64,000 nt of DNA, taken from a virus. Location: positions 62,001-126,000 of the IMG/VR virus record IMGVR_UViG_3300017971_000213; one strand, written 5' to 3'. Below, one piece after another: positions 14,701 to 64,000 of the stretch. Both the position numbers and the translations under genes were made by a program. The stretch's first letter is position 1, and every line of letters starts with the position of its first letter. The notes beneath the pieces were generated by a model. It made no database searches, was not told the origin of the DNA, and was given only the letters and a program-made list of their open reading frames with translations.

Positions 14701-15772
14701 ATGTAGCCTGCGATGCGCTGTTGTCGATCAGCACCGCATGATTGGTCCCGCCATCCTGCGTGATCGTGAACGGACCAGCCGTCATGTTCATAGCTGCATC
14801 ATCGCAATCGAAGTCGAAGGAACCGCCGCTTGCGTTGAGCGCGATGCCTCCAGAACCAGACTGAATCGTCGTCGTCGTCGTCGTGTTGGTCGAGCCGATG
14901 GTCAGAGTGTTCGCCACTGCGCCAGTACCGATGTTGATCGTCTGCGCGACGGCATTAGCTCCAATGTTGATAGTCGAAGCGGTCGACTCGATGTCGACGG
15001 TCGGGGCCGTCATGGTGATGGTCCCTGCCGCCGTGACCGTCATGTCCTCCAGCACCGCATTCACGCTCAACTGATCGGCTGCCGGCGTCTCGTAATCCCA
15101 ATAGTCACTTTCGAGAGCGTTGTTCGTGGTAATACGATGCTTCGCCGCTGTATTCTCAGTCAGCTCGAACTGAAGGTCGCCCGTCCCAGCCGCGACAAGG
15201 ATGTCCTGCCCTTGGGTATACGCCTGCTGGAGACTGTTACCCGCAGATGTTCCAGCAGTCTGCCACGTGGCACCGTTGTACCACTGGAAAGCGCCCGCTC
15301 CGTTAACTCGGACAGCGCCCGTTGCCAAATTGGCAGGAGCATCGTCAGAGTCGGGAAGGATCAGAACAGACTCCGAATCGGCAGTACGGTCGAACAAGAC
15401 ACTCTTGTCCTGTGCGACATCCATGTCGACACGGAGATTGACATCAGTGTCACCACTCGCATCGGCAGTACCGATGTTGACGACGTCAACAGCCGTATCG
15501 TACGCACCGCCGAGGGTGATGGTATCGCCGTCTCCGTCACCGAACTGGACGGTACCGCTGTTCACGGTCAGAGTACTGCTATCGAGCAGAGTCACCGTAC
15601 CAGGAAACTGAACCTCCTGACCGGTACGACCGATGGTGATCGTGGTGGCGTTGGTGGTACCGATGTTCAACGCCGCAGCAGACGAAGCATCCAGACTACG
15701 CGCGTTGAGGACGTCAGTGGCCTCGATGAAATTCCTTACTTGCCCTGAGGGCCTTACCAGCGGTAGAACCAT
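11732..15772 (-). CDS. Giant repetitive tail/capsid fibre protein
   Basis: 1346 aa, ATG after GGAGAGGAG. The N-terminus (to about residue 70) has an NIGTTNATTITIGR motif like those in marine-phage fibres. The centre holds four related modules of about 130-180 aa, each with a line of the form RRIGTIADAS or RTIGTVADAE, then a VxNIxA strand, a GxVxIGD turn and an SVTGGxLxxG strand. The last 120 residues (from DEDLTAGQPVTAYN) form a compact domain seen on other fibre-like proteins. It is very rich in Thr, Ser, Ala, Gly and Asp, nearly free of Lys and Cys. Probably a long trimeric fibre; attachment point unknown. Confidence 0.78.
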   Translation of the reverse strand: MVLPLVRPSGQVRNFIEATDVLNARSLDASSAAALNIGTTNATTITIGRTGQEVQFPGTVTLLDSSTLTVNSGTVQFGDGDGDTITLGGAYDTAVDVVNIGTADASGDTDVNLRVDMDVAQDKSVLFDRTADSESVLILPDSDDAPANLATGAVRVNGAGAFQWYNGATWQTAGTSAGNSLQQAYTQGQDILVAAGTGDLQFELTENTAAKHRITTNNALESDYWDYETPAADQLSVNAVLEDMTVTAAGTITMTAPTVDIESTASTINIGANAVAQTINIGTGAVANTLTIGSTNTTTTTTIQSGSGGIALNASGGSFDFDCDDAAMNMTAGPFTITQDGGTNHAVLIDNSASQATSLALTLEGSNRRIGTIADASNSELVVGSFAASGTQGADNKITARVLGSATSGAALMEVESKNDNSGETATTKVFADASAAAYAAVEIQKDNDGTVRIGDNSGTKQFSIQGAAANSGISVTGGDLSVGTVTSGDLRLSAGGDIYLADTSTAQDIQIGFRDSGTHTGADDASVLTDSAQDWDTNELVGLRVYNTTDGSSGLVTANTSTTVTATLSGGAQNDWDTGDAYYLTFVAGSGSTLTAYLDEGTITLKNSALKINGPATSNDGAALIVDCSDNAGIAIGLTGTQRTIGTVADAEDDVMIVATYGTTTVAPRLNLLSRVLTGSANDATINIGADSQASSDAAADAQVNIYAQVDGTGDAEVNIQATDAGIINIGNASNANVEFNIVGNGTASNISVTGGTLGLSTATSGDITVGAAGEITLDDGNRSGSTYSTAMKFTDTSGEWDTFETNFGEVSLINAVNQAYASAGAVGLQDAYEDDNTIAATSANGAIAFSVADTQNVDVLTLTQNDDTNDKHGLVVDNNTNNGASVYLSGTSRRVSSVADADATDFIVANYGTDSSYVPNMQVGAVTVGTTSITPRLTLVSNGSNGTNNNAEILMYAHSGGTGDAQVRIQDVQDGEVKIGDAAHSVTLDVNVDSATMDLSSGAFTVTGPTSGGSGSLKVICGDISGDAIRLGGTYSNIRLVASATDGPIMTIASSNDATYSPQLDLIAHNRAGATAGNASVNLIADASVVSTRNATVNIAARPGSTGSGALNIQPSGYDAAVSIGHAGSGTSVAIAGGSASSFQTTSANLTLGTLTSGTLLLASAGELTLNDQHLSAAIPISESGTTGLDAAFTATSIVGALNELKGGATDEYTSWYAQPDEDLTAGQPVTAYNSGTNGIISVADANDANKKYGLCGVCVTGATTASGDDAEIATTGVVDVTSNASETWSAGDAVYLDTNAGCATTTAPSTSGDVVQRLGWATGDSGATTSHEIVLAIGEPTLV

Positions 15773-63302: not shown

Positions 63303-64000
63303 GTCGAGACTTCTAAACCGTCTCACAGACATCGAGGGGATCGGCCAGTCGAGACTTCTAAACCGTCTCGCAGGTATTGTAAGCTGAGGCGATGAACCGT
63401 ATTGCCAACACGGCCCGACAGTCGAGACTTCTAAACCGTCTCGCAGGTATTGGAAGCCCGCGAGAGTGAGCGCGTCTCCAGATGAGGCCAAGACGTCGAG
63501 ACTTCTAAACCGTCTCGCAGGTATTGGAAGGGCCTCATGGTAGAGGATGTTGTCGGCGCGGTTGGGGGTCGAGACTTCTAAACCGTCTCGCAGGTATTGT
63601 AAGAAGAGCAACGGGCGAAGTGAGGGTACCAAGCACTTTGCGTCGAGACTTCTAAACCGTCTCGCAGGTATTGGAAGGGCGATCCCGAAAAAGATCGCGG
63701 CTTGGCCTCTCAGTCGAGACTTCTAAACCGTCTCGCAGGTATTGTAAGAACTGCGTGTTCGGGCTCCAGCTCAACCCGGCCTCTCAGTCGAGACTTCTAA
63801 ACCGTCTCGCAGGTATTGTAAGCTCCGCGCGACGGAAGGGTAACGTCTACATCACCACGTCGAGACTTCTAAACCGTCTCGCAGGTATTGTAAGAGTGGA
63901 CTGGCAACCACTCCAACGGAGAGTGGCGTCCGTCGAGACCTCTAAACCGTCTCGCAGGTATTGTAAACAAGGGACGGTGCGCGCCCTGGGCCAGGCCTCC
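63303..64000. CRISPR. CRISPR array (nine 36-nt repeats plus a degenerate one)
   Basis: Repeats begin at 63348, 63421, 63495, 63568, 63642, 63713, 63787, 63859 and 63932; spacers are 35-38 nt. On the plus strand each unit starts GTCGAGACTTCTAAACC and contains the stem CGAGAC...GTCTCG. Position 33 is T or G. A degenerate repeat (63303-63338) is followed by only 9 nt. The last repeat (63932) has two changes, and the array runs past the right edge. No cas gene is visible. Confidence 0.95.

What the first reader, a model, noticed from the sequence alone, without database searches (positions are those of the whole stretch)
63303..64000. Phage-borne CRISPR array with repeat architecture like type V arrays
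The minus-strand repeat ends in the stem CGAGAC...GTCTCG followed by AC, right next to the spacer. This is the layout of Cas12-type repeats, including phage-encoded Cas12j. The repeats vary mainly at the end far from the spacer (TTGTAAG or TTGGAAG on the plus strand), as expected if that end is trimmed. In the plus orientation the ATTGTAAG end would instead look like a class 1 handle, so the type is open. The effector should lie right of this window.
Basis: partly seen in the sequence, partly recalled or inferred. Interest (0 to 1): 0.72.

Follow-up and report, generated by a model that had tools for sequence, protein, structure and literature searches.

The report
Phage-borne Cas12m (type V-M) CRISPR locus
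A large bacterial virus carries its own compact CRISPR system, a Cas12m protein plus 16 guides, which by analogy with tested relatives probably sits on the DNA of rival viruses and blocks it without cutting; such loci recur in at least two dozen other viral sequences.

Summary
The array is real. It runs past the window edge: 18 repeats and 16 full-length spacers (15 distinct) over 1,251 bp. The window lies in a 129-kb virus record. A second record (192 kb, 99.998% identical) extends it, and portal, terminase and tail-fibre genes confirm a tailed phage. The predicted effector is 167 bp right of the array, on the minus strand: a 642-aa Cas12m (type V-M, formerly V-U1). HMM, PDB sequence search, AlphaFold/Foldseek and alignment all agree. 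The repeat forms the Cas12m pseudoknot, supported by strong covariation across relatives.

No Cas1 was found here or in 28 related phage records. About 30 IMG/VR phages carry Cas12m, most with an array directly downstream. A sister phage from the same sample has its own locus with entirely different spacers. One spacer matches this phage's own gene 34/38, with coding-type differences, so it probably targets a relative's homologue. The likeliest function is RNA-guided DNA binding that silences competing phages. The RuvC triad is intact (D-E-D), but tested D-E-D Cas12m proteins bind and do not cut. Surprise: a related phage replaces the array with 28 individually diverged scaffolds carrying mostly 16-22-nt guides.

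The parts
63303..63338 (-). Terminal, leader-distal degenerate repeat (CCCTCGATGTCTGTGAGACGGTTTAGAAGTCTCGAC), separated from the next repeat by only 9 nt
63348..63967 (-). Nine complete 36-nt repeats (63348-63383, 63421-63456, 63495-63530, 63568-63603, 63642-63677, 63713-63748, 63787-63822, 63859-63894, 63932-63967) and the 35-38-nt spacers between them (A9-A16)
63968..64000 (-). 33 bases of the 38-nt spacer A8, cut by the window edge. OUTSIDE THE WINDOW the locus goes on (window-equivalent = record minus 62000): array to 64553 (eight more repeats, spacers A1-A8, including A4, the near-match to the phage's own gene, and A3, identical to A13); 166-nt leader 64554-64719 with a boxA-like GTTCTTTGACAA just after the cas12m stop codon; cas12m gene 64720-66648, minus strand (record 126720-128648, L004:6720-8648), 642 aa, RuvC D313/E494/D585, zinc ribbon C556/C559/C575/C578, WED His-Arg H261/R262

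Best explanation
A phage-encoded type V-M CRISPR locus. Cas12m and the array are transcribed on the minus strand in the order effector, boxA-like leader, array. Cas12m binds the repeat's pseudoknot, trims the pre-crRNA inside the repeat, and uses the spacer's first ~17-20 nt to bind double-stranded DNA beside a 5' PAM. Bound Cas12m blocks transcription or replication of competing phages (or plasmids) in the same cell, probably without cutting. SHOWN here: gene, array, anatomy, family, no detectable Cas1, conservation of the layout in other phages. INFERRED from characterised Cas12m proteins: crRNA trimming, PAM-dependent binding, silencing without cleavage. INFERRED from one spacer and the setting: rival, related phages are the target. 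How spacers are gained without Cas1/Cas2 is unknown; a host system acting in trans, or recombination, are candidates.
For: Effector: PADLOC Cas12u1 E=1e-101. PDB sequence hits: Cas12m 23vw E=3e-66, Cas12m2 8hhl 7e-28. AF2 model pLDDT 83; the four best Foldseek hits are all Cas12m structures, E 4e-28 to 2e-21, then Cas12f/TnpB at 1e-10 and weaker. Scaffold: both pseudoknot helices covary over 13 family repeats (94% of cells paired vs 62% shuffled; 35 double-sided changes vs 10; every slid control far lower). Geometry matches the Cas12m2 crRNA structure: 6-bp helix, G:A pair, C(-1) read by His-Arg (PMC10442227); His-Arg is conserved here. Layout: Cas12m in 36 IMG/VR loci, most with an array directly downstream; scaffold-pattern units 195 downstream on the coding strand vs 22-29 in controls. 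No Cas1 in 30 records, positive controls ringing. No cleavage: D-E-D, H-D-D and N-D-D Cas12m proteins were tested and none cut dsDNA; 6 of the 8 variants showed PAM-dependent binding (PMC11013384); the triad is eroded in six viral relatives, two of them (L105, L120) in this protein's own clade. Target: spacer A4 matches a phage gene 34/38, 28 contiguous, E=7e-11; differences are silent plus one V/T change. Sister phage B from the same sample: Cas12m 52% identical, repeat nearly identical, no shared spacer.
Against: Only 1 of 15 distinct spacers has an interpretable target. None matched phage or plasmid records, and three tested seeds matched nothing else in IMG/VR. No RNA or biochemical data. 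The RuvC triad is intact, so cutting cannot be excluded by sequence. No convincing array promoter was found by the simple scan.
Confidence: 0.72

Rival explanations
1. Same locus, but the phage Cas12m with its intact D-E-D RuvC site cuts or nicks target DNA, so it works as a phage-borne nuclease like Cas12j.
For: D313/E494/D585 are all present. PMC10442227 speculates that D-E-D clades may hydrolyse DNA.
Against: Four D-E-D Cas12m orthologues were among those tested and no dsDNA cleavage was seen; purified MsCas12m, whose RuvC residue is D274, cut neither DNA nor RNA (PMC11013384). Close viral relatives have lost the triad.
Confidence: 0.15
2. The guides silence host genes (defence or metabolism) to take over the cell rather than rival phages.
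For: Some huge-phage arrays carry host-targeting spacers (PMC7162821). Most spacers here have no known target.
Against: The only interpretable spacer (A4) matches a gene of this phage's own lineage. No host genome was available to test.
Confidence: 0.15
3. Self-regulation: A4 is a guide against the phage's own gene and tunes its expression.
For: 34/38 match with 28 contiguous bases at record G001:162475-162512.
Against: A mismatch at guide position 2 (seed) and three at 31-33; the differences keep the reading frame, as expected of a diverged homologue in another phage. No other spacer matches the own genome.
Confidence: 0.05
4. The array is an orphan or decoy for a host class 1 system, read on the plus strand.
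For: The plus-strand repeat end ATTGTAAG superficially resembles a class 1 handle.
Against: Cas12m is adjacent and co-oriented with minus-strand reading. Covariation, the conserved GAC end and the boxA-like leader fix the minus strand.
Confidence: 0.02

Closest known systems
Type V-M CRISPR-Cas12m of plasmids and bacteria (MmCas12m2, GoCas12m, MsCas12m)
   Same: Effector family and fold, single effector gene, repeat length and pseudoknot scaffold ending in AC, array next to cas12m
   Different: Carried by a large tailed phage; about 24-34% identical to the plasmid Cas12m proteins compared here; lies in a group of 26 viral Cas12m rows (support 95/89) whose sister is MsCas12m
Virus Rctr197k (KX853510) Cas12m-like locus, annotated only as 'similar to transposase' plus CRISPR
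   Same: Phage of about 197 kb, cas12m followed by the array, GCTCTTTGACAA leader, 38% identical terminase
   Different: Cas12m about 32% identical, different repeat, different spacers
Phage type V-U variants reported from huge phages and landfills (PMC7162821, PMC12607003)
   Same: Phage-encoded V-U effectors beside arrays without acquisition genes
   Different: In the passages read, those papers do not describe this phage, the pseudoknot covariation or the diverged-scaffold arrays
   Same: Compact phage Cas12 with an array
   Different: Different family; weaker fold match (Foldseek E 9e-6 vs 4e-28 for Cas12m2)

Membership tests
Type V-M (Cas12m) | Effector homologous to Cas12m/V-U1 over its full length | tested here: met
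   PADLOC Cas12u1 residues 2-595, E=1e-101; PDB Cas12m E=3e-66
Type V-M (Cas12m) | Cas12m fold nearer than Cas12f/TnpB | tested here: met
   Foldseek top four hits are all Cas12m
Type V-M (Cas12m) | CRISPR array next to the effector | tested here: met
   18 repeats starting 167 bp from the cas12m stop codon
Type V-M (Cas12m) | Repeat forms the Cas12m pseudoknot with G:A pair and C(-1) | tested here: met
   Covariation counts; published crRNA structure
Type V-M (Cas12m) | No tracrRNA | tested here: inconclusive
   No Rfam match; no targeted anti-repeat search was made and no RNA data exist
Type V-M (Cas12m) | Binds dsDNA without cleaving it | not testable with these tools
   Inferred from PMC11013384
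Type V-J (Cas12j) | Effector closest to Cas12j | tested here: not met
Class 1 (type I/III) | Class 1 cas genes near the array | tested here: not met
   The neighbouring gene is cas12m; no Cas1 in the record. Other class 1 genes were not searched record-wide
Complete adaptive CRISPR system | Cas1 (acquisition) encoded in the genome | tested here: not met
   No PF01867 match in G000, G001 or 28 related phage records

The most novel reading that the evidence does not exclude
A large lineage of phages uses Cas12m as a dedicated RNA-guided DNA roadblock against other phages, independent of CRISPR adaptation. In part of the lineage the array has left the CRISPR format altogether: scaffolds are no longer identical repeats but individually diverged pseudoknots kept by compensatory changes, with guides cut down to about the 17-bp heteroduplex (28 units in phage L095; smaller cases in L105, L109 and L111).
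Probability: 0.45. Interest if true: 0.75.

Novelty: new member of a known kind. Interest (0 to 1): 0.52.

Why it matters
Cas12m is known mainly from plasmids, and its place in phages is mentioned only in passing in the papers read here. This locus and its relatives give complete phage systems (effector, array, leader, paired sister phages in one sample) in which non-cutting phage-phage interference can be tested directly. The relatives with diverged scaffolds offer a natural route from a CRISPR array to fixed guide RNAs, and compact ~47-nt guide units of possible practical use.

Tried and rejected
Plus-strand class 1 reading: rejected (Cas12m neighbour, covariation). Spacer targets: 15 spacers vs phages and plasmids, no match; vs sister phages B, G008 and Rctr197k, nothing above chance; translated spacers vs five phages, only A4 above the shuffles; three exact seeds in IMG/VR, self only. 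Relatives of the A4 target gene in IMG/VR: only self. The same repeat in other IMG/VR contigs: only the twin record. Self-targets for the 28 short guides of L095: none. Array flanked by inverted repeats in the window phage: no convincing arms. Rfam: no match. Promoter and terminator scans: not above shuffles. Genome scan with the single protein found nothing; with the alignment it found one full-length bacterial relative.

Full report
OBSERVATION. The window is record positions 62001-126000 of a 129,006-bp IMG/VR virus record. The array is present as described and extends to record 126553: 18 repeats, 16 spacers of 34-40 nt (two identical, A3 and A13), and a last 9-nt interval before a degenerate terminal repeat. 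In Cas12m2 the same 5' stretch (-36 to -30) is disordered (PMC10442227).

EFFECTOR. A 642-aa minus-strand ORF ends 167 bp right of the array. It is Cas12m: PADLOC Cas12u1 E=1e-101 over residues 2-595, PDB Cas12m entries first, AF2 model with mean pLDDT 83 (pTM 0.63) whose four best Foldseek hits are Cas12m structures. Pfam and NCBIfam see only the TnpB/Cas12f-like C-terminus. The RuvC triad is D313-E494-D585 and the zinc ribbon is intact. Tested D-E-D family members did not cut dsDNA (PMC11013384).

ORIENTATION AND SCAFFOLD. Reading effector then leader then array on the minus strand puts the degenerate repeat at the leader-distal end. The minus-strand repeat folds as a pseudoknot: ACC with GGU and CGAGAC with GUCUCG, then A(-2), C(-1). 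Thirteen repeats from phages and plasmids support both helices by covariation (94% of cells paired vs 62% in shuffles; covariation score 0.85 vs 0.23; all slid controls at or below 0.15). The sister phage has CCC:GGG where this one has ACC:GGU. A 12-nt boxA-like motif GCTCTTTGACAA (at most one mismatch) lies between cas12m and the array in this phage, phage B, L097, L116 and Rctr197k. boxA has been reported upstream of natural CRISPR arrays (Stringer et al., as cited in PMC7862264).

PHAGE CONTEXT. Portal (E=2e-66), terminase (4e-47) and collagen-like tail fibres and a 14-tRNA cluster mark a large tailed phage. Record G001 (192,260 bp) is 99.998% identical over the shared 129 kb and carries the same array and effector; it is probably the same phage population, so it is not independent evidence. 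Terminase relatives at 64-80% identity were found in IMG/VR; Rctr197k is 38%. Phage B (G011 and G012, 99.99% identical and permuted relative to each other, so circular or circularly permuted, ~188 kb) has a 732-aa Cas12m (52% identical), an 11-repeat array with nearly the same repeat and no shared spacer; G012 comes from the same IMG sample number as G001. G008 has only TnpB-like genes and no array.

FAMILY. An alignment-based scan found Cas12m relatives in 36 IMG/VR loci, some of them duplicates of one phage, but only one full-length one in 84,980 GTDB genomes. The two scans used partly different patterns, so the enrichment in viruses is suggestive, not measured. Twenty-six viral rows form one group (95/89) with the A. 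silvanus plasmid protein as sister; many branches are long. The triad is eroded in L103, L105, L110, L113, L116 and L120, consistent with cleavage being dispensable. No Cas1 in 30 phage records, with positive controls ringing.

TARGETS. Fourteen of 15 distinct spacers have no target in anything searched. A4 matches the phage's own genome at G001:162475-162512, 34/38 with 28 contiguous bases, E=7e-11, inside a 126-aa ORF. In the ORF's frame the spacer reads LVTQVRDGAFCK against LVVQVRDGAFCK, with the other changes silent. That is what a homologue in a related phage would give, with mismatches at guide position 2 and 31-33 that may spare the carrier.

SIDE FINDING. Phage L095 (180 kb, Cas12m 39-41% identical) has, from a few bases after the cas12m stop, 28 units with a period of about 47 nt: 29-nt scaffolds that differ from unit to unit and guides mostly 16-22 nt long. 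Base pairing is kept in 96.8% of cells against 84.2% in shuffles, with 45 double-sided changes against 13. No self-target was found. Units with short gaps and altered stems also occur at L105, L109 and L111. The guide length fits the 17-bp heteroduplex of Cas12m2. I know of no published description, but the library searched is partial; TIGR stem-loop arrays with variable palindromic repeats (PMC12045711) are an architectural parallel with an unrelated effector.

VERDICT. An ordinary kind of system (type V-M) in an under-described carrier. Type and anatomy are close to certain. Silencing of competitors is the best-supported function and remains inferred.

Noticed in passing
L095:7755-9100 (IMGVR_UViG_3300024243_000005); same array in L094 and L096: 28 guide units with ~47-nt period: individually diverged 29-nt pseudoknot scaffolds kept by compensatory changes, guides mostly 16-22 nt, starting right after a cas12m stop codon.
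   Followed up: partly
L063:14550-14587 and 15501-15538 (sister phage B): The whole array of phage B is bracketed by a 38-nt inverted repeat (89% complementary) whose left arm contains the boxA-like motif.
   Followed up: no
L111:7748-8150, L105:7989-8060, L109:7732-8300: Further Cas12m loci with few, non-identical scaffolds and shortened guide gaps.
   Followed up: partly
L020:2634-2888 and 993-2396 (Rctr197k): A second CRISPR array with a different repeat next to a 'transposase-like' gene in a phage that also has a Cas12m locus.
   Followed up: no
window 63642-63822 and L004:6332-6369 (spacers A11, A12, A13, A3): Spacers A11 and A12 share their first nine bases (TGAGAGGCC), and A3 is identical to A13, pointing to duplication or recombination inside the array.
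   Followed up: no
G000 and G001 record ends (L005:1-125; L004:8960-9006): The G000 ends fall in short tandem repeats (ggagcagcggcagcc, catcaagtaccc), and the first of these also ends G001, so the record ends look like assembly breaks.
   Followed up: partly
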